NCBI RefSeq assembly: GCF_007829035.1
Contig: NZ_VIVQ01000001.1
Coordinates: 124,001 to 188,000 of the forward strand
Length of the DNA stretch: 64,000 nucleotides
DNA from: Rudaeicoccus suwonensis
GTDB lineage: Bacteria; Actinomycetota; Actinomycetes; Actinomycetales; Dermatophilaceae
Reading direction: 5' to 3'
Numbering within the stretch: position 1 is the first letter of the stretch; each line of letters opens with the position of its first letter. This document shows, one piece after another, positions 36,370-43,394 of this stretch. The notes under the pieces were generated by a model. It made no database searches, was not told where the DNA came from, and saw only the letters and a program-made list of their open reading frames with translations. The position numbers and the translations under genes were made by a program.

Positions 36370-38373
36370 ATGGCTCGACGGACCAGCGATCGTGCGCCCA
36401 AGTCCGGCGCCGTTACCGCCAACCTGCCCCAGGGCGCCAAACCGATGCGCCGTCAGGGTGGGCCGGGTATGGGCATGGGAATGGCCGAGAAGTCCAAAGA
36501 CTTCAAGGGTTCCGCAAAGCGCCTCGTGCGGCTGCTTGCTCCGCACCGGCTGAAACTGATCACGGTCCTGCTGCTCACCATCACAGCTGTCGTGTTCAAC
36601 GTCGTGGCTCCCCGTGTGCTGGGGCAGGCAGTCGACAAGATCTACTCCGGCGCGGTCAGCATGCACCTGCCAGCAGGTGTCACAAAGGCCGCCGTCGTCG
36701 CCGGGCTGCGCGCTCGTGGCGAGGGCACGCTCGCCGACATGGTCAACAAGATGGACCTGGTGCCCGGCATCGGCATTGACTTCGGTGCCGTCGGCCGGAT
36801 TCTGCTGGTGGTTCTGGCGCTGTATGTCGTCGCCGGCACCTGCCAGTTCGTGCAAGCACGCATGCTCAACCGCATCGTGCAGAACACGATGAACACCTTG
36901 CGCAAAGACGTCGAAGCCAAGATCAACCGAGTGCCGTTGAGCTACCTCGACGGTCAGCCGCGCGGCGAGTTGCTGTCCCGTGTCACCAACGACATCGACA
37001 ACATCGGCCAGTCGATGCAGCAGACGATCAGCCAGTTGCTGTTCAACGGGCTGTCGGTCATCGGAGTGGTCGTCATGATGCTGACGATCTCGTGGTGGTT
37101 GACGCTCGTGGCGATGATCGCCATACCCGTCGTGATGGTTGTGACCAAGCAGGTGATGAAGCGGTCGCAGACGCTGTTCGTCGCGCAGTGGGGGCACACC
37201 GGCAAGCTCAACGGGCAGATCGAGGAGACCTTCACCGCGCACGAGCTCGTCAAGGTCTTCGGCCGTCAGCAGGAGGTCGACGCCAGCTTCGACGAGACCA
37301 ACTCCACGCTGGCGGACGTCAGCTGGCGGGCGCAGTTCGTCAGCGGTCTTGTCATGCCGGTGATGATGTTCGTCGGAAACCTGCAGTATGTCGCGGTCTG
37401 CGTCCTGGGTGGGCTGCAGGTGGCCAGCGGTGCGATGACTCTCGGCGATGTGACTGCGTTCATTCAGTACTCGCGACAGTTCACCCAGCCGTTGACACAG
37501 TTGGCGTCGATGGTCAACCTCATGCAGTCCGGCGTCGCCAGCGCGGAGCGGGTCTTCGAGGTGCTGGACGCGCCGGAGCAGACTCCGGAGGAGACCACCG
37601 CACTGCCCCACACGCGCGGCCGGGTCGAATTCGACCACGTCAGCTTCGGCTACACCGACGGAGCACCGCTCATCGAGGATCTCTCGCTGGTTGCCGAGCC
37701 CGGTCAGACGGTGGCGATCGTCGGGCCGACCGGCGCAGGCAAGACCACGCTGGTCAACCTGATCATGCGCTTCTACGAATTGAACTCGGGCCGGATCCTG
37801 CTCGACGGCACCGACATCAGCAGTGTTCCCCGGTCGCAGCTGCGCTCGCGGATCGGCATGGTGTTGCAGGACACCTGGCTGTTCCACGGCACGATCTGGG
37901 ACAACATCGCCTACGGCCGCATCGGCGCAAGTCGGGAGGAAGTCCTCGCGGCTGCGCGGGCGACCTTCGTCGACCGGTTCGTGCACTCGCTGCCGGACGG
38001 CTACGAAACGGTCATCGACGAGGAGGCCTCCAACATCTCGACCGGCGAGCGTCAGCTGATGACGATCGCGCGAGCCTTCCTGGCGGATCCGGCGTTGCTG
38101 ATTCTCGACGAAGCGACGTCGTCAGTGGATACACGCACCGAGGTGCTGCTGCAGCACGCGATGGCTGCCTTACGATCCGACCGGACGAGTTTTGTGATCG
38201 CGCACCGGCTTTCGACGATCCGCGATGCCGACACGATCCTGGTCATGGAGGACGGCCGCATCGTCGAGCAGGGCAATCACGAGGATCTGCTCAAGGCCCG
38301 CGGGGCGTATCACCGGTTGTACATGTCGCAGTTCGAAGGTGCCGCCACAGATGACGAGGAGGTCGCCGTCTGA
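36370..38373 (+). CDS. ABC exporter half-transporter, catalytic subunit
   Basis: 667 residues. Long N-terminal extension with Gly/Met repeats (GGPGMGMGMAEK), six membrane segments, and an ATPase with GPTGAGKTT, Walker B LLILDEATSSVD (catalytic Glu present) and H-loop IAHRLS. The signature is NISTGERQ instead of LSGGQ. Paired with the preceding gene, one intact ATP site is formed from this protein's Walker motifs and the partner's normal signature. GTG at 36364 (GTGA overlap) is an alternative start. Confidence 0.92.
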   Translation: MARRTSDRAPKSGAVTANLPQGAKPMRRQGGPGMGMGMAEKSKDFKGSAKRLVRLLAPHRLKLITVLLLTITAVVFNVVAPRVLGQAVDKIYSGAVSMHLPAGVTKAAVVAGLRARGEGTLADMVNKMDLVPGIGIDFGAVGRILLVVLALYVVAGTCQFVQARMLNRIVQNTMNTLRKDVEAKINRVPLSYLDGQPRGELLSRVTNDIDNIGQSMQQTISQLLFNGLSVIGVVVMMLTISWWLTLVAMIAIPVVMVVTKQVMKRSQTLFVAQWGHTGKLNGQIEETFTAHELVKVFGRQQEVDASFDETNSTLADVSWRAQFVSGLVMPVMMFVGNLQYVAVCVLGGLQVASGAMTLGDVTAFIQYSRQFTQPLTQLASMVNLMQSGVASAERVFEVLDAPEQTPEETTALPHTRGRVEFDHVSFGYTDGAPLIEDLSLVAEPGQTVAIVGPTGAGKTTLVNLIMRFYELNSGRILLDGTDISSVPRSQLRSRIGMVLQDTWLFHGTIWDNIAYGRIGASREEVLAAARATFVDRFVHSLPDGYETVIDEEASNISTGERQLMTIARAFLADPALLILDEATSSVDTRTEVLLQHAMAALRSDRTSFVIAHRLSTIRDADTILVMEDGRIVEQGNHEDLLKARGAYHRLYMSQFEGAATDDEEVAV

Positions 38374-38387
38374 CGGACGCGGTCGTG

Positions 38388-38425
38388 CTTGCAGCCGGTT
38401 GCTGTGCGCCACCAGAGGCTGCAAG
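38388..38425. terminator. Bidirectional hairpin
   Basis: CTTGCAGCC, 20-base loop, GGCTGCAAG, lying between the convergent ABC exporter and lipase-like genes. The long loop lowers confidence. Confidence 0.5.
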
Positions 38426-38464
38426 TGGGTCACTGCTCTCGTGCGCTCCTCTGAACCGCCCGGG

Positions 38465-39862
38465 TCATGGCCGTCGCAGGTGGTACTCGAAGACGTCATC
38501 GCCACCACCGGTGAGCCACGGTGCAGCGGAATCTCGCCAGCGTGCCAACCCTGGGTCGGCGTCCAACGACTGGCCGTTGACGGCGACGGTGTCCAGATAA
38601 CGCCGTGCGTCGTGCGCTTCGAACAGCTCGATCCGGTCGGCGTCCGGTGGAGTGCAGGCCACGACGATGCGATTGATCGTCGACGGATCTGCGGTGCCGT
38701 CGAGTTTGGGCACCGGGTCGCCGGCGAGTTCGACCGACAGCACCTGCACGGTGTCGGGAGCCTCGATGCGCGACACGGGCGATCCAGCAGTGACGACCTG
38801 CCGCACGTCGAACGTCTCGCGGAAGCTGTCGTCGGCCGCGAGTCGCATCGCGATGAGCCCGCCCTGGCTGTGGCCCACCAGCATCACCGGTTCGCTGCCC
38901 GGCGCAATTCCCCTGGCAGCCATGGCATCTCGCACGGCGGATTCGATGGCGGCGTAGTTGCTGGAGGGCAGCCCGGCGGCGGCCCGCACATTGGCGGTGA
39001 GATCTGCCGGGCTGTGCGGCTCGTCGGGTGACCAGTTCGAGGTTCCCGGGACGATGACCGACCATGCTCCTCTGCCATCGGCTCCGACGCTCCTGCGGAC
39101 CTGCACAGTCGAGTGGTCGTCACCCGACGCAGCCTCCACGGTTCGGGCCTGCCGCAGCAGCCCTGCGACATCGGACGCTGATGTGTCCGATCGGCGTGCG
39201 ATGCGGCTCACCGTCAATGGGGTGCGGTCGTCGAGCTTGCCGGCAGCGTTGGCGAGGCCGTTGATCCAGGCGACCTGCTGTTCGTAGCTGCTGCCTGTCG
39301 GCGGGTCGATGCCGACCGCTGCCAGAGCGGGTGAGCCCGCGAGCACGAGACCGCGCACCACCGTGACCGCTGCGGGCACCAGTTGCGGATCGACATACGC
39401 GAGGCGTTCGAGGTCGGCGAGAAGGGTCTTCGGATTCCCGTGTGACGTGCTCAACGCTGACGTGAGCGCGGTCGCCACGCGCGGGGCAGCGGTCGCCACC
39501 TGGATCGCGGCGAGTGCGCGTTGCTCCGCCTCATCGGTGAGTTCGTAGGCCTGTGCGCTCCATCGCACCGTGCGTGCGACGAACTCCATCTGGACGGCCA
39601 GGCTGCCCAGGCTGTTCGGGCCGATGGTCAGCCCGGCCACCTCGTCGGCGATCGCGGCTGCAGACCCTGGTGAAAGGACGGCGCTCTTCAGTGGCAGATG
39701 ACTCGCTGCACGCGCGACGTCACCGCACAACGAGGTGGCGTCGTCGCCGGAGGTGTCGAGCCGGTGCGCGGTGCTGCGCATGTCCGAGACGTCTGCGGCG
39801 GTCGAACGCGCACCCCCGCTCACGACGCACCGGGCTGGCGTCTGCCCTGATCCGGTGGTCAT
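38465..39862 (-). CDS. Alpha/beta hydrolase with WXG100-like N-domain and type VII export motif
   Basis: 465 residues. Residues 15-130 form two helices of the ESX/WXG100-like kind (STAADVSDMRSTAHRLDTSG; LAVQMEFVARTVRWSAQAY), ending in Y106-E-L-T-D110, which fits the YxxxD/E export signal of type VII secretion. Residues 260-465 look like a lipase/esterase domain with VIVPGTSNW, nucleophile GHSQGG (S332) and candidate acidic residues in LAGDPVPKLDG. No Sec signal. Third gene of a minus-strand operon, ATGA overlap with its predecessor. No ESX core genes in the window. Export is inference. Confidence 0.65.
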   Translation of the reverse strand: MTTGSGQTPARCVVSGGARSTAADVSDMRSTAHRLDTSGDDATSLCGDVARAASHLPLKSAVLSPGSAAAIADEVAGLTIGPNSLGSLAVQMEFVARTVRWSAQAYELTDEAEQRALAAIQVATAAPRVATALTSALSTSHGNPKTLLADLERLAYVDPQLVPAAVTVVRGLVLAGSPALAAVGIDPPTGSSYEQQVAWINGLANAAGKLDDRTPLTVSRIARRSDTSASDVAGLLRQARTVEAASGDDHSTVQVRRSVGADGRGAWSVIVPGTSNWSPDEPHSPADLTANVRAAAGLPSSNYAAIESAVRDAMAARGIAPGSEPVMLVGHSQGGLIAMRLAADDSFRETFDVRQVVTAGSPVSRIEAPDTVQVLSVELAGDPVPKLDGTADPSTINRIVVACTPPDADRIELFEAHDARRYLDTVAVNGQSLDADPGLARWRDSAAPWLTGGGDDVFEYHLRRP

Positions 39863-40539
39863 GACAGTGGCTCCGGCAGGAGCCCGACGAGGTCGGAGGC
39901 TCGTTCAGCGACCGCCCCGGCAGAGAGCCGGACGAAGCGGACTTGATCATTGTCGAACTGCAAGCGACCCCAGCCGGATTCGAGCAGCTGGAAGCACACC
40001 GCTGATCTCAGCGAGCTATCGACGACGGCCATGATCGACAGATGCGCGCGTGCGCCCCACGCACATTCGACGAGCCAGTTCGGCACGTGAGTCAAGCCGG
40101 TCGCATCCAGGCCAGCCTGCAGTTCGGTGCTGCTGCCACGGCGCACGAGGTCTGCGAGTGCGAGGGAATCAGCCGTGTCCAACCACTCATCGTCAGTCGG
40201 TCTCTCCGGCGACCGATCATCCGTTAATCGATGTGGCGGTTCGACCGGCTCGGCGACGCCGGCCGACGTGGTGAGTGCGCCTACTGATGCGGCAAACGCG
40301 TCCGCCGCCGACTCCCGACCGCACACCTCGACGCCGAGGCCTTCATCGTCCGGGGAGGCGATGACGAGGTTGTCGCCGTCGGCTGCCACCACAGCCGCGC
40401 CGATCCGAGTCGCTGTGCCCATCTGCACCAGCAGATGATCACCCTCACGCATGCGCTGTATGACGCGCCGACCATCGTCGGGTGCACGCACGACCCCGGA
40501 CCGCGCCGAATCCGCTGCGCTCGCCGGCCGAATCGTCAT
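39859..40539 (-). CDS. Unknown protein in lipase/WXG cassette
   Basis: 226 residues. Two parts are visible: residues 20-75 with GDHLLVQMGTATRIGAAVVAADGDNLVIASPDD, and residues 120-225 with WLDTADSLALADLVRRGSSTELQAGL and a beta-rich end (AHLSIMAVVDSSLRSAVCFQLL; GRLQFDNDQVRFVRLS). It has no signal peptide. Weak resemblance to EspG-type chaperones of type VII systems (length, mixed beta fold) is the most I can offer. Starts and stops overlap both neighbours, so it is translated with them. Confidence 0.6.
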   Translation of the reverse strand: MTIRPASAADSARSGVVRAPDDGRRVIQRMREGDHLLVQMGTATRIGAAVVAADGDNLVIASPDDEGLGVEVCGRESAADAFAASVGALTTSAGVAEPVEPPHRLTDDRSPERPTDDEWLDTADSLALADLVRRGSSTELQAGLDATGLTHVPNWLVECAWGARAHLSIMAVVDSSLRSAVCFQLLESGWGRLQFDNDQVRFVRLSAGAVAERASDLVGLLPEPLS

Positions 40540-40958
40540 CGGCCCACCAACGGTATGTGACGGCGGATCGTGTTCAGATCGTCGACAGCGTCGGACACAG
40601 CGGCGATCGCCACGCCGGCGCCCACCGTTCCGGCGGCATGGGCCGAGTCAGCCGAGTGCTTCACCGCCCCGGCGACGACGTTTCCAGTGGCCGAGGCGAG
40701 CGACGCGAGCACGCGCTCATGGTCTTCGACATGAGTGGCATGTGCGAACAGCAGCCGGCTGAGCCGGTCGAGATCGTCGGCGCGAGCGCGGAAGTCCCGG
40801 GCGCGATCGGTCAAGCGCTCTCTGTATCGATCTGCGCCCACGCTCCGCCACTGCACACCTCCGGCCGCGGTGACGCTCGCCGCCGCCGTCCGAGCGCGAT
40901 CGGCAAGCTCGGCTACCCGCCGTGCCTGAGCTCTGATCTGCTCCGCATCGTCTGACAT
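40536..40958 (-). CDS. WXG100-like helical protein
   Basis: 140 residues. Helix (EQIRAQARRVAELADRARTAAASVT), a turn with W37-R-S-V-G41, then helix (ADRYRERLTDRARDFRARADDLDRLSRLLFAHATHV) - the helix-Trp-Gly-helix hairpin of WXG100 proteins, though with W-x3-G spacing. A third, Ala/Val-rich helix follows. First gene of the cassette, about 170 bases upstream of the EtfD-like gene's 3' end. Probable partner of the lipase-like protein. Confidence 0.65.
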   Translation of the reverse strand: MSDDAEQIRAQARRVAELADRARTAAASVTAAGGVQWRSVGADRYRERLTDRARDFRARADDLDRLSRLLFAHATHVEDHERVLASLASATGNVVAGAVKHSADSAHAAGTVGAGVAIAAVSDAVDDLNTIRRHIPLVGR

Positions 40959-41051
40959 GCCAGGACGCTATGTCGCCCCATCTGTCGCGCGCCCCGGTCT
41001 CGACGCCAATTGTGGACACCGCCCGCCACCGTCACAGCCTGTGGATCCGCG

Positions 41052-41147
41052 CGATTCTCACTCGGCGCCGCGGCGTGCTTGTTGCCGCCGCGGCTGTGCC
41101 TCGCTCCGATCCTCGCTACCGCTCGATTCTCACTCGGCGCCGCGGCG
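41052..41147. repeat. 24-bp direct repeat pair
   Basis: CGATTCTCACTCGGCGCCGC plus four bases (CGGCG end) occurs at 41052-41075 and 41124-41147, 72 bases apart. The second copy overlaps the 3' end of the EtfD-like gene; the first lies outside it. It looks like a partial duplication of that gene's end. Confidence 0.75.
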
Positions 41148-43394
41148 GACAGCAGCGAGCAGCATGTTCGCCACGTCCACCACCTCAACGTCCTCGCGCG
41201 CGTTGCCGTCGGACTGCTCCGCAGTCAACCCGTCGGTGAGCATGACCCGGCAGAACGGACAGCCGATCGCGATCCGGTCAGCGCCGGTCGCGACTGCCTC
41301 ACGGGTGCGGTTGAGGTTGATCCGCGACCCGAGTTTCTCCTCCATCCACATCCGAGCACCACCGGCGCCGCAGCAGAAGGACGTCATACCCGAGCGCTCC
41401 ATTTCGCGGTACTCCACACCCGGCAGGGCACCGATCAGTTCGCGCGGCGGCGCATACACATCGTTGTGTCGGCCCAGGTAGCACGGGTCGTGATATGTCA
41501 CGGACGCACCTGTCGACGCCGCCCCCGAGGTGTCCGCCTCGCCCGGACGAGCCACCGGCACCAGTCGCTTGTCACGCACGAGCCGGTTCAGCAGCTGCGT
41601 GTGGTGCACCACCTCGTAGTTCCCGCCGAGTTGCGGATACTCGTTCTTCAACGTGTTGAAGCAGTGCGCGCAGGTCACGACGATCTTCCTGGCACCGGCC
41701 TCATTGAGCGTCTCGACATTCTGCGACGCCAGCGCCTGGAACAGCATCTCGTTGCCCGCGCGCCGCGCCGAGTCACCCGTGCACGCCTCGCCGTCGCCGA
41801 GCACCGCGAACGAAACCCCAGCAGTGTCAAGCAGTTCCGCGACAGCACGCGTGGTCTTCTTCGCGCGGTCTTCATAGGCCCCGGCGCACCCCACCCAGAG
41901 CAGGTAATCCACTTCGGACAGCGACTCGATGTCCTGCCCGAAGACCTTCACCTCGAACGGCAGGCCCTTGGCCCAGTCCAGGCGAGCACGGGCCGACATA
42001 CCCCACGGATTCGCCTTGCCTTCGAGATTCTTGAACAGCCCGCCAAGCTCCGACGGAAAGGCCGACTCGATGAGCGTCTGGTAACGGCGCATGTCGACGA
42101 TGTGATCGACGTGCTCGATGTCGACCGGGCACTGCTCGACGCACGCGCCGCACGTGGTGCACGACCACAGCACGTCCGCGTCGACCACCGCCTCGGCGTT
42201 CCCCAGCGGGTTGTATGCCGTGAGCGGTGCCTGCTCGTCATAGCCGGTCGCACCGATCAACGGGATCTGCGTGATGGGGTTCTCCGCTGTCGCGGGACCG
42301 GTGCCCGCGTCGCCCGCTCCCGCGGCATTCGCCGCCAGCAGGTAGGGCGCCTTGGCGTGTGCATGGTCGCGCAGCGTCATCATCAGCAGCTTCGGCGACA
42401 ACGGCTTCTCGGTGTTCCATGCCGGGCACTGGCTCTGACAGCGACCGCACTCGGTGCACGTCGTGAAGTCCAGCAAGCCCTTCCAGGTGAAGTCTTCGGC
42501 GGCTCCGACGCCGAACGACACGTCCTCGTCGAGTTCCTCCAGCGACTCCATCGTCACCGGCTGCCCGTCGACCACCATCGGCTGCAGCGCGCCGAGCGCA
42601 GTGCGGCCGTCCGCATTGCGTTTGGTCCAGATGTTGGCGAACGCCAGGAACCGGTGCCACGCGACACCCATGGTCGTGTTGAGCGCGATCGTGATCATCC
42701 ATGCCATGGAGATGCAGATCTTCAGTGCCGCGATGACCACGATGAGCGCCTTCACATGAGCCTCGCTCATGCTGTGGAAGGCGTCGCCGATGAAGAACGT
42801 CAGAGGGAAGTGCAGCGCGCTGGCGTCGGCGTGGTGGCCGTGCCGGCCCAGGGCGTATTCGAGCCCGCGCAGCGTCAGCACACACAACACCACGCCCAGG
42901 ATCGTCAGTTCGACGTAGTACGCCTGCCAGAAGCTCGACCCGAAGAAGCGCGACTTCCGGCCGTCCGTGCCTGCCGCACGTGCCGGGTGATTGCGTCGGC
43001 GGTTCCAGATCAGCCAGCAGATGCCGAACAGCCCCAGCCACGCGAACAACTCGGTGAGCCACTCGAACGGCGGGAAGGTGTCCAGCCACGGGATCACCCA
43101 GTGCGGGTCGAAGATCTGACCGTATGCCGTGACCAGCGTGAAGAACAGCAGTCCGAAGCTGATCATCGTGACCCAGTGGGCCACGGCGACGACCGGCAGG
43201 CGGGACATCCGCGTGTGTCCGAGGAACTCGCGCAGCAGCGTCCGGGTGCGAGCGCCCCGATGATCGGAACGCGAGGCGGACCGGCCCAGCCGAAAGGTCG
43301 CAACCATGCGGCTGACGGCGCGCACCAACAGAGCGATGCCCACAACGGAGATGGCGATGGTGACGACCGCGGCCACGATCTGCAGAGCTGACAT
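41130..43394 (-). CDS. etfD: Membrane Fe-S oxidoreductase, EtfD-like
   Basis: 754 residues. About five membrane segments in the first 235, then two ferredoxin motifs (CTECGRCQSQCP, CTTCGACVEQCP) and two CCG domains (VGCAGAYEDRA..., FCCGAGGARMW). This order is that of mycobacterial Rv0338c/EtfD, which passes electrons from ETF to the membrane quinone/cytochrome chain during fatty acid oxidation. The window also carries an acyl-CoA dehydrogenase and a thioesterase. GGAG lies before ATG. Confidence 0.88.
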   Translation of the reverse strand: MSALQIVAAVVTIAISVVGIALLVRAVSRMVATFRLGRSASRSDHRGARTRTLLREFLGHTRMSRLPVVAVAHWVTMISFGLLFFTLVTAYGQIFDPHWVIPWLDTFPPFEWLTELFAWLGLFGICWLIWNRRRNHPARAAGTDGRKSRFFGSSFWQAYYVELTILGVVLCVLTLRGLEYALGRHGHHADASALHFPLTFFIGDAFHSMSEAHVKALIVVIAALKICISMAWMITIALNTTMGVAWHRFLAFANIWTKRNADGRTALGALQPMVVDGQPVTMESLEELDEDVSFGVGAAEDFTWKGLLDFTTCTECGRCQSQCPAWNTEKPLSPKLLMMTLRDHAHAKAPYLLAANAAGAGDAGTGPATAENPITQIPLIGATGYDEQAPLTAYNPLGNAEAVVDADVLWSCTTCGACVEQCPVDIEHVDHIVDMRRYQTLIESAFPSELGGLFKNLEGKANPWGMSARARLDWAKGLPFEVKVFGQDIESLSEVDYLLWVGCAGAYEDRAKKTTRAVAELLDTAGVSFAVLGDGEACTGDSARRAGNEMLFQALASQNVETLNEAGARKIVVTCAHCFNTLKNEYPQLGGNYEVVHHTQLLNRLVRDKRLVPVARPGEADTSGAASTGASVTYHDPCYLGRHNDVYAPPRELIGALPGVEYREMERSGMTSFCCGAGGARMWMEEKLGSRINLNRTREAVATGADRIAIGCPFCRVMLTDGLTAEQSDGNAREDVEVVDVANMLLAAVRRGAE

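What the first reader, a model, noticed from the sequence alone, without database searches (positions are those of the whole stretch)
38465..40958. WXG100-like / unknown / lipase cassette with YxxxD signal
Three genes overlapping by ATGA encode a helical WXG-type protein, an unrecognised 226-residue protein that could be a chaperone, and a hydrolase whose N-domain is helical and ends in Y-E-L-T-D. This looks like a type VII secreted lipase or esterase with its partners, yet no ESX machinery is nearby. It is the best candidate here for an undescribed system.
Basis: partly seen in the sequence, partly recalled or inferred. Interest (0 to 1): 0.6.

Follow-up and report, generated by a model that had tools for sequence, protein, structure and literature searches.

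The report
Chaperoned lipase export cassette without ESX
Three linked genes appear to encode a fat-cutting enzyme with a built-in export tag, its small partner and a dedicated chaperone of a kind best known from tuberculosis bacteria, in a related bacterium in whose genome only the motor of that export machine was found.

Summary
Genes A (40536-40958), B (39859-40539) and C (38465-39862), minus strand, overlap by ATGA. A is a WXG100-like protein (W-x-S/G in 14 of 14 aligned sequences, no YxxxD/E). C is a helical hairpin with YxxxD/E (28 of 28 aligned) fused to a Ser-Asp-His lipase-like hydrolase. B, unrecognised by Pfam and NCBIfam, is predicted to fold as an EspG chaperone: all 14 Foldseek PDB matches with E<0.001 are EspG, and syntenic intermediates lead to proteins over Pfam's EspG cut-off. 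In two relatives C carries another hydrolase while A, B and the hairpin stay, so B goes with the export module. EccD and EccB were not found in this genome; one EssC-like FHA-FtsK ATPase was. Among ATPases read from this family, its 26 clade mates all lie beside Tad-like pilus genes. Best reading: B delivers an A:C pair to this ATPase, which exports a lipase. Parts, motifs and predicted folds are tested; pairing and export are inferred. New variant of a known kind: an EspG-chaperoned enzyme cassette outside ESX loci, possibly served by an undescribed Tad-linked type VII ATPase.

The parts
40536..40958 (-). gene A, 140 aa, WXG100-like protein (WxG partner)
   Evidence: PF06013 14.7 bits, below cut-off; 14-row alignment with invariant W37; orthologues L053 and L044 over the PF06013 cut-off, L046 just below
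40842..40850 (-). W-R-S motif (residues 37-39 of A), the WxG-type turn
   Evidence: W-x-[SG] in 14 of 14; no YxxxD/E in any of the 14
40536..40539 (.). ATGA overlap of A stop and B start (translational coupling inferred)
   Evidence: 4-base overlap in 13 of 13 relatives
39859..40539 (-). gene B, 226 aa, EspG-fold protein, probable export chaperone
   Evidence: AlphaFold2 pLDDT 84.6; Foldseek: 14 of 14 PDB hits with E<0.001 are EspG; VIA Z 8.0 to EspG5; HHalign chain to PF14011 members
39859..39862 (.). ATGA overlap of B stop and C start
   Evidence: B-C overlap of 1-17 bases in 12 of 13 relatives
38465..39862 (-). gene C, 465 aa, cargo: N-terminal hairpin plus alpha/beta hydrolase
   Evidence: AlphaFold2 pLDDT 88.4; alignments A3, A4, A7
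39443..39802 (-). helical hairpin domain of C (residues 21-140), WXG100-like
   Evidence: helices 21-55 and 85-140; aligns to EsxA 3zbh, Z 10.4, 1.9 A over 91 residues
39533..39547 (-). Y-E-L-T-D (residues 106-110 of C), YxxxD/E type VII signal motif
   Evidence: 28 of 28 rows of alignment A7; Y106 invariant in the 14 rows of A4 too
38468..39178 (-). hydrolase domain of C (residues 229-465), lipase/feruloyl-esterase-like
   Evidence: VIA Z 11-12.7 to lipases, feruloyl esterase and phospholipase A1
38867..38869 (-). Ser332 of GHSQGG; with Asp382 (38717-38719) and His417 (38612-38614) the inferred catalytic triad
   Evidence: S, D and H each invariant in 28 of 28

Best explanation
The three genes are a self-contained export kit for a lipase-like enzyme. 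A (WxG, no YxxxD/E) and the N-terminal hairpin of C (YxxxD/E) pair as a four-helix WXG100-type heterodimer, which puts the two halves of the bipartite type VII signal side by side, as in mycobacterial PE-PPE pairs. B, an EspG-fold chaperone probably made by coupled translation, holds the A:C pair soluble in the cytoplasm and delivers it to an EssC/EccC-type ATPase. In this genome the only candidate found is the solitary FHA-FtsK ATPase on contig C3. The hydrolase domain is carried out as cargo and acts on an ester or lipid of the cell's own envelope or surroundings. Shown here: the motifs, the predicted folds of B and C, the conserved order, the exchange of the hydrolase domain with the rest kept, the presence of the ATPase and the failure to find EccB and EccD. 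Inferred: the A:C pairing, B's binding, export through this ATPase, and the substrate.
For: B: all 14 PDB matches with E<0.001 are EspG1, EspG3 or EspG5 (best 1.5e-6, prob 1.00); the next match is at 0.012, prob 0.14; VIA Z 6.3-8.0 for 13 EspG entries, next 4.6. Two of five B orthologues tested from Pseudonocardiales and Segniliparus, both Actinokineospora, pass the PF14011 cut-off (31.5 and 52.1 against 27 bits); HHalign links window-type B to intermediates (prob 96.7) and these to the Pseudonocardiales type (prob 96.6). W-x-[SG] in 14 of 14 A, YxxxD/E in 0 of 14 A and 28 of 28 C. Hairpin of C aligns to EsxA at 1.9 A over 91 residues. Triad S332/D382/H417 invariant in 28 of 28. In G088 and G090 the hydrolase is PF06259 instead while A, B and the hairpin remain. 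No strongly hydrophobic N-terminal segment in A, B or C (crude Kyte-Doolittle scan). In the family 105 of 106 genomes with a C relative (E<=1e-8) have an EssC-like ATPase (E<=1e-40), against 64 of 80 without; the exception is 83% complete.
Against: No secretion data. EccD and EccB, membrane parts of ESX, were not found in the window's genome, so a complete export channel is not shown. Window B itself hits no family, matches the Pseudonocardiales B profile directly only weakly (prob 23), and three of the five Pseudonocardiales/Segniliparus B proteins tested show no EspG match either. The hairpin also aligns to ESCRT-III CHMP1B equally well (Z 10.5), so the fold alone does not single out WXG100. 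EssC-like ATPases are common in the family (169 of 186), many C relatives counted match over the hydrolase only, and the genomes are related, so co-occurrence is weak evidence. In G090 a 247-aa gene with a lipoprotein-like start overlaps the end of C by 4 bases and could be an immunity gene. No A:C or A:B:C complex could be modelled.
Confidence: 0.65

Rival explanations
1. Toxin and immunity: C is an antibacterial lipase delivered by a T7 system and B is its immunity protein, neutralising the hydrolase, rather than a delivery chaperone.
For: T7 lipase toxins exist (TslA, PMC10730906, seen as search listing with abstract start only). B is beside C in 13 of 13 relatives. In G090 (L036) a 247-aa lipoprotein-like gene overlaps the end of C, where an immunity gene would be expected (no Pfam family).
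Against: B has the fold of delivery chaperones and stays when the hydrolase is exchanged for a PF06259 domain in G088 and G090. The cassette has one B per genome and a largely fixed place. Between C and the convergent ABC gene there are only 91 bases in the window and 3-78 bases in 10 of 12 relatives, so no downstream immunity gene fits there; B lies upstream of C, whereas EsaG lies downstream of its toxin (PMC10653861, passage).
Confidence: 0.11
2. Cytoplasmic enzyme: the hairpin, A and B are leftovers of an export module; C works inside the cell, and the lone ATPase serves other cargo or none.
For: EccB and EccD were not found in this genome; the EssC-like ATPase is elsewhere in the genome, beside Tad-like genes in relatives, and Tad-linked copies also occur in genomes without the cassette.
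Against: W-x-[SG] and YxxxD/E are kept without exception in the aligned sets and A, B and C are kept together in 13 of 13 relatives, which is not expected of a decaying module; the ATPase keeps an open frame of 1424 codons, and two other loci of the genome carry WxG or YxxxE proteins.
Confidence: 0.14
3. Export by a standard ESX (T7SSa) whose EccB/EccD are too divergent to be found or lie in an assembly gap.
For: 13 of 13 Pseudonocardiales/Segniliparus genomes with the cassette that were searched have EccD; so do some members of the window's family (28 of 186 over cut-off).
Against: The same profiles find EccD and EccB in other genomes of the family; the window's genome is listed as 99.95% complete; 15 of 16 genomes with window-type B lack an EccD match and 16 of 16 lack EccB over cut-off.
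Confidence: 0.08

Closest known systems
PE/PPE-EspG export in mycobacterial ESX systems; among its cargo the ESX-5 lipase LipY
   Same: WxG on one partner and YxxxD/E on the other; EspG-fold chaperone; enzyme domain (lipase/hydrolase) fused behind the targeting hairpin (PMC7028111, passages)
   Different: No PE or PPE Pfam match in A or C; chaperone encoded inside the cargo operon, not in an ESX locus; EccB/EccD not found; named relatives with the cassette are Flexivirga, Leekyejoonella, Lentzea and the like
EsaD-EsaE-EsxBCD pre-secretion complex of Staphylococcus aureus T7SSb
   Same: Effector with helical N-domain, small WXG-like partners and EspG-fold chaperone EsaE, all in one locus (PMC10653861, passages)
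   Different: Nuclease toxin with a downstream immunity gene; three partners, not one; locus sits beside essC; here lipase-like, one partner, no downstream immunity gene in the window
TslA, T7-secreted lipase of S. aureus
   Same: Lipase carried as T7 cargo with small helical partners (PMC10730906, listing only; PMC11217815, passage)
   Different: TslA has its helical targeting domain at the C-terminus (reverse order); here it is N-terminal
T7SSd, T7SSg and T7SSh subtypes (Garrett et al. 2024, PMC11217815)
   Same: EssC-like ATPase in systems described without EccB/EccD; T7SSg and T7SSh lie beside Tad pilus genes; T7SSh has an EspG orthologue
   Different: T7SSg/h are reported only from Bacillota and their ATPases lack FHA; T7SSd is the only new subtype reported there for Actinomycetota and has TsdD/H/I partners; here an FHA-bearing ATPase beside Tad-like genes in Actinomycetota
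Abhydrolase_8 / DUF1023 hydrolases (PF06259)
   Same: alpha/beta hydrolase; two relatives of the cassette carry this domain behind the same hairpin
   Different: Window C has no PF06259 match up to E 1

Membership tests
EspG chaperone family (PF14011) | sequence match over the Pfam gathering score | tested here: not met
   Window B: no Pfam match up to E 1; 2 of 5 orthologues tested (L053, L063) pass, 3 (L044, L046, L048) show no EspG match
EspG chaperone family (PF14011) | EspG fold | tested here: met
   on a predicted model: only EspG chains at E<0.001; Z 8.0 against next unrelated 4.6
EspG chaperone family (PF14011) | binds a WxG/YxxxD substrate pair and sets system specificity | not testable with these tools
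   no complex modelling; only co-occurrence in one operon
WXG100 (PF06013), gene A | match over the Pfam gathering score | tested here: not met
   14.7 bits against 27.3; orthologues L053 and L044 pass with 29.8 and 29.3, L046 has 26.9
WXG100 (PF06013), gene A | WxG motif in a protein of about 100 residues | tested here: met
   W37-x-[SG] in 14 of 14, lengths 99-140 aa; the helices of A were not modelled
T7SS substrate pair | bipartite signal: WxG on one partner, YxxxD/E on the other | tested here: met
   14 of 14 A, 28 of 28 C
T7SS substrate pair | secretion dependent on EccC/EssC | not testable with these tools
   needs a mutant
T7SSa (ESX) | EccD | tested here: not met
   none in G000; the same search matches 33 of 118 class genomes and 47 of 186 family genomes, 28 over cut-off
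T7SSa (ESX) | EccB | tested here: not met
   only an 18.9-bit match below the 27-bit cut-off, in another reading frame of an IclR regulator gene; 34 of 186 family genomes pass
T7SSa (ESX) | EccE and MycP | not tested
T7SSb | EssC-type ATPase with FHA and FtsK/SpoIIIE domains | tested here: inconclusive
   TIGR03928 438 bits against cut-off 778; FHA and FtsK_SpoIIIE over Pfam cut-off
T7SSb | EssB, EsaA, EssA, EsaB | not tested
   no search made
T7SSd (Garrett et al. 2024) | TsdD kinase, TsdH, TsdI beside the ATPase | not tested
   no such profile at hand; none recognised by eye near the ATPase
PE / PPE protein | PE or PPE Pfam domain | tested here: not met
   no such match for A or C up to E 1
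TslA-type reverse lipase | lipase domain N-terminal to the helical targeting domain | tested here: not met
   order is hairpin then hydrolase
Lipase_3 (PF01764) | match over the gathering score | tested here: not met
   12.6 bits against 22; predicted fold and triad agree with lipases

The most novel reading that the evidence does not exclude
Actinomycetota of the Flexivirga/Leekyejoonella kind carry an undescribed T7SS subtype: a solitary FHA-bearing EssC-like ATPase encoded divergently from a Tad-like pilus operon and working without EccB and EccD, which exports EspG-chaperoned WxG/YxxxD enzyme pairs, perhaps along or together with the pilus. The free-standing A-B-C cassette would be the ancestral form of the PE/PPE/EspG module that mycobacterial ESX loci later took up.
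Probability: 0.22. Interest if true: 0.82.

Novelty: new variant of a known kind. Interest (0 to 1): 0.62.

Why it matters
In the model of Newton-Foot et al. 2016 espG, pe and ppe were added to a plasmid-borne ESX cluster within the mycolic-acid bacteria (PMC4791881, passages). An EspG-type cargo operon found in Pseudonocardiaceae, Cellulomonas, Nocardioides and the window's family, including genomes where EccB and EccD were not found, gives a testable alternative origin for that module and a simple setting in which to study how an EspG-fold chaperone hands a folded enzyme to a T7 ATPase. The pairing of an EssC-like ATPase with a Tad pilus, reported for two Bacillota subtypes as possibly coincidental (PMC11217815), recurs here in another phylum.

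Tried and rejected
Tried without result: Pfam and NCBIfam for window B (none); direct HHalign of window-type B to Pseudonocardiales B (prob 23), supplemented by the chain through intermediates; Foldseek of whole C (nothing at E<0.001), read instead by VIA; promoter and terminator scan of 38300-41200 (none).

Considered and rejected: (1) the 234-aa gene of the second cassette (L023) as another EspG: no similarity by HHalign, though no model was made. (2) EccB in the window's genome: the 18.9-bit match is in a different frame (offset 2) from an IclR regulator gene with PF01614 at 125.6 bits. (3) G043 as a B carrier: the single-sequence hit lies in a 1944-codon frame and the profile does not confirm it; I did not fetch that place. 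(4) 'Tad lost but EssC kept' in the window's genome: wrong, tadA is on the same contig 9.4 kb away. (5) B as immunity protein: see rivals.

Rows dropped and choices: alignment A7 holds 28 C proteins chosen because their N-domain aligns; hydrolase-only relatives (Nocardioides, Janibacter, Bifidobacterium and others among the 80 loci, themselves the best 80 of 275) were left out, so '28 of 28' speaks for that group. The two PF06259-bearing C proteins are in A4, not A7. The ATPase loci were picked by hand from the list: 11 in cassette-bearing genomes (L021, L129-L138), 40 across genera (L140-L179); one of the 51 (L143) was dropped because the gene is cut by the contig end. One search covered 18 genomes picked from the 80 loci. 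The E-value limits were set by me.
Full report
THE THREE GENES. The minus strand of 38465-40958 holds three ORFs of 140, 226 and 465 codons that overlap by ATGA, here named A, B and C in order of transcription. Of 14 other genomes with a B hit, 13 were fetched (G043 was left out). In 13 of 13 A, B and C stand in the same order; the ABC-transporter pair that lies beyond C in the window (PF00664 and PF00005 in the nearer gene) is within the fetched stretch in 12 of 13 and the Fe-S/CCG-domain gene that flanks A in 8 of 13. A and B overlap by 4 bases in 13 of 13, B and C by 1-17 bases in 12 of 13, with a 31-base gap in the other (starts were picked as the nearest to the upstream stop). This looks like a vertically kept, single-place operon rather than a mobile toxin locus.

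GENE A. Pfam gives only a sub-threshold WXG100 match (14.7 against 27.3 bits). In 14 aligned sequences W37 is invariant and followed by x-[SG]; none of the 14 has YxxxD/E. Of three distant orthologues tested, Actinokineospora (L053) and Segniliparus (L044) pass the WXG100 cut-off with 29.8 and 29.3 bits and L046 falls just short with 26.9.

GENE B. No Pfam or NCBIfam family. The AlphaFold2 model (14-row alignment, mean pLDDT 84.6) has two halves, each a four-stranded sheet plus helices. Foldseek against the PDB gives 14 matches with E<0.001 and all are EspG3, EspG5 or EspG1, the best at 1.5e-6 with probability 1.00; the first other match is at 0.012 with probability 0.14. VIA-align gives Z 6.3-8.0 for 13 EspG entries and 4.6 for the next. 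By sequence, five B proteins of the same operon in Pseudonocardiales and Segniliparus were tested: two, both Actinokineospora, pass Pfam's EspG cut-off (31.5 and 52.1 against 27 bits) and three show no EspG match. HHalign links window-type B to the Cellulomonas/Nocardioides type with probability 96.7 and that type to the Pseudonocardiales type with 96.6; the direct comparison is weak (23) and a negative control with A gives 0.3. I therefore call B an EspG-fold protein related to EspG, not a PF14011 member by direct test.

GENE C. The model (28-row alignment, mean pLDDT 88.4) shows helices 21-55 and 85-140 and a hydrolase from about residue 229. Residues 23-119 align to Geobacillus EsxA with Z 10.4, 1.9 A over 91 residues, and to S. 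aureus EsxA with Z 10.1 and 9.4; ESCRT-III CHMP1B scores as high (10.5), so the fold shows a hairpin, not WXG100 descent by itself. Foldseek gave nothing for C at E<0.001. Y106 is invariant and D or E stands at +4 in 28 of 28. The hydrolase aligns to phospholipase A1, feruloyl esterase and fungal lipases (Z 11-12.7); S332 of GHSQGG, D382 and H417 are invariant in 28 of 28. A crude hydropathy scan shows no strongly hydrophobic segment near the N-terminus of A, B or C (highest 19-residue mean 0.42; within C 1.74 near residue 165).

A NATURAL DOMAIN SWAP. In G088 and G090 the C protein keeps the hairpin with YDNAE or YDRAE but its hydrolase is PF06259 (106.7 and 114.4 bits); the C profile matches these two only within its first 117 positions. 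A and B are recognisable in both. G089, of the same genus, has the usual hydrolase. So A, B and the hairpin form the constant part and the enzyme is exchangeable cargo, which argues for B as a chaperone of the hairpin module and against B as an immunity protein of the enzyme. Against a simple reading: in G090 a 247-aa gene with a lipoprotein-like start and no Pfam family overlaps the end of C and might be an immunity gene. In the window (91 bases) and in 10 of 12 relatives (3-78 bases) there is no room for such a gene before the convergent ABC gene.

HOW WIDE. A pattern-based scan of 84,980 species genomes found 275 relatives of C, of which the best 80 were kept. Of 40 loci with both an A-like and a C-like gene (L043-L116), 27 have an ORF of 218-280 codons that starts within 90 bases of A's stop and runs on toward C, most of them Lentzea and Actinokineospora, plus Cellulomonas, Nocardioides, a Frankiales MAG and others; 15 of these plus Segniliparus were aligned as one B family and three others with a fourth B as another; the rest were not tested for homology to B. 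Segniliparus rugosus has its B-like gene before A. Three Bifidobacterium loci have a weakly A-like gene (E 9e-5 to 5e-4) ending at or just inside the C frame and no B between.

THE MACHINE. In the window's genome (listed as 99.95% complete) EccD is not found, and the only EccB match is an 18.9-bit hit in another frame of an IclR regulator gene. The same searches match 33 of 118 class genomes (EccD, 29 over cut-off), 47 of 186 family genomes (EccD, 28 over cut-off) and 34 of 186 (EccB over cut-off). The genome does hold one EssC-like protein of 1424 aa with FHA and FtsK/SpoIIIE domains (TIGR03928 438 bits, below that model's 778), a canonical WXG100 protein with WKG and YAQVE (53.5 bits, L022), and a second locus where one protein carries YDATE and the next WSG (L023). 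A profile finds window-type B in 16 of 186 genomes: all 16 have an EssC-like match at E<=1e-40, 15 of 16 lack an EccD match (G088 is the exception) and 16 of 16 lack EccB over cut-off. Over the family, 105 of 106 genomes with a C relative have the ATPase, against 64 of 80 without; among genomes at least 90% complete and at most 5% contaminated it is 100 of 100 against 54 of 62 (Fisher p 3e-4; the genomes are related and many C relatives match over the hydrolase only, so the p-value is generous). By contrast, of 18 other cassette or C-bearing genomes searched, 13 of 13 Pseudonocardiales/Segniliparus have EccD, one Cellulomonas does (95.6 bits, just over cut-off), and four (Nocardioides, a Frankiales MAG, Bifidobacterium, Gardnerella) do not. 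The cargo kit thus occurs beside different machines.

TAD LINKAGE. EssC-like loci were picked by hand. In 26 of the 50 usable ones a TadA-like gene (PF00437 in the query) lies within 723 bases of the ATPase gene, with TadB- and TadC-like genes (PF00482) behind it in 23 of 26; the Tad names rest on these domains and on gene order, TadE by eye. In a tree of the 50 proteins these 26 and the window genome's own ATPase make up one group of 27 with SH-aLRT support 100; in the window's genome tadA is 9.4 kb away on the same contig (ATPase C3:225865-230139, tadA C3:239545-240759). The linkage also exists in genomes without a C match (G040, G041, G017), so the ATPase cannot serve this cargo alone. Garrett et al. 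2024 report Tad adjacency for T7SSg and T7SSh of Bacillota and leave open whether it is coincidence; T7SSd is the only new subtype they report in Actinomycetota (PMC11217815: abstract, sections 7, 12, 13, 16 and passages).

COMPARISON WITH THE KNOWN. It would work like PE/PPE-EspG export, where the WxG of PPE and the YxxxD/E of PE form a composite signal and lipases such as LipY ride behind the PE or PPE domain (PMC7028111, passages), and like the EsaD-EsaE-EsxBCD complex with its EspG-like EsaE (PMC10653861, passages). It is not filed as a member of ESX (EccB and EccD tested, not met), nor of PE/PPE. Seven searches of the paper library (listings of the top rows only) showed no paper that by title or abstract start describes this cassette or a Tad-linked EssC in Actinomycetota; most subscription papers and all preprint servers are outside that library.

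VERDICT. A real, conserved cassette, unannotated by the family libraries in its middle gene, that most likely encodes an EspG-chaperoned lipase cargo; export inferred, not shown. On checking, confidence in the best reading was lowered slightly (0.66 to 0.65) and that of the toxin-immunity rival raised (0.10 to 0.11) because of the lipoprotein-like gene in G090. Interest 0.62.

Noticed in passing
L129-L138, L140-L179 (50 usable of 51 EssC loci with L021); own genome L021 10865-15139: A clade of FHA-bearing EssC-like ATPases sits directly beside (0-723 bp) Tad-like pilus genes in 26 loci of this actinobacterial family; the window genome's copy belongs to the clade with tadA 9.4 kb away.
   Followed up: partly
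L023 9116-11102 (G000:C1 1121116-1123102): Second T7-type locus in the same genome: a 95-aa protein with YDATE, a WXG100 protein of 300 aa with WSG, and a 234-aa unknown of EspG-like length without detectable similarity to EspG.
   Followed up: partly
L022 9081-9479: Lone canonical WXG100 protein (53.5 bits) with both WKG and YAQVE, beside a helicase-like gene (by eye); possible EsxA of this genome.
   Followed up: no
G004:C2 3246013-3263355; G139:C1 2352821-2424616; G147:C11 594904-674689: tadA is split into two pieces lying about 16, 71 and 79 kb apart; in G139 and G147 the break is at about the same place (codons 213-234), as if tadA were an integration site for a mobile element.
   Followed up: no
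L036 8789-9532 (G090): 247-aa gene with a lipoprotein-like start overlapping the end of a PF06259-type C by 4 bases; no Pfam family; possible immunity or partner gene.
   Followed up: partly
window 41047-41075 and 41119-41147: Near-perfect 29-base direct repeat, 72 bases apart, between A and the Fe-S gene; the second copy covers the 3' end of that gene; its 23-base core has no other copy in the window with up to 3 mismatches.
   Followed up: partly
L098, L109, L114 (Bifidobacterium): Relatives of C directly behind a small, weakly WXG-like gene with no EspG-like gene between; may be cargo of the T7SSd reported for this genus.
   Followed up: no
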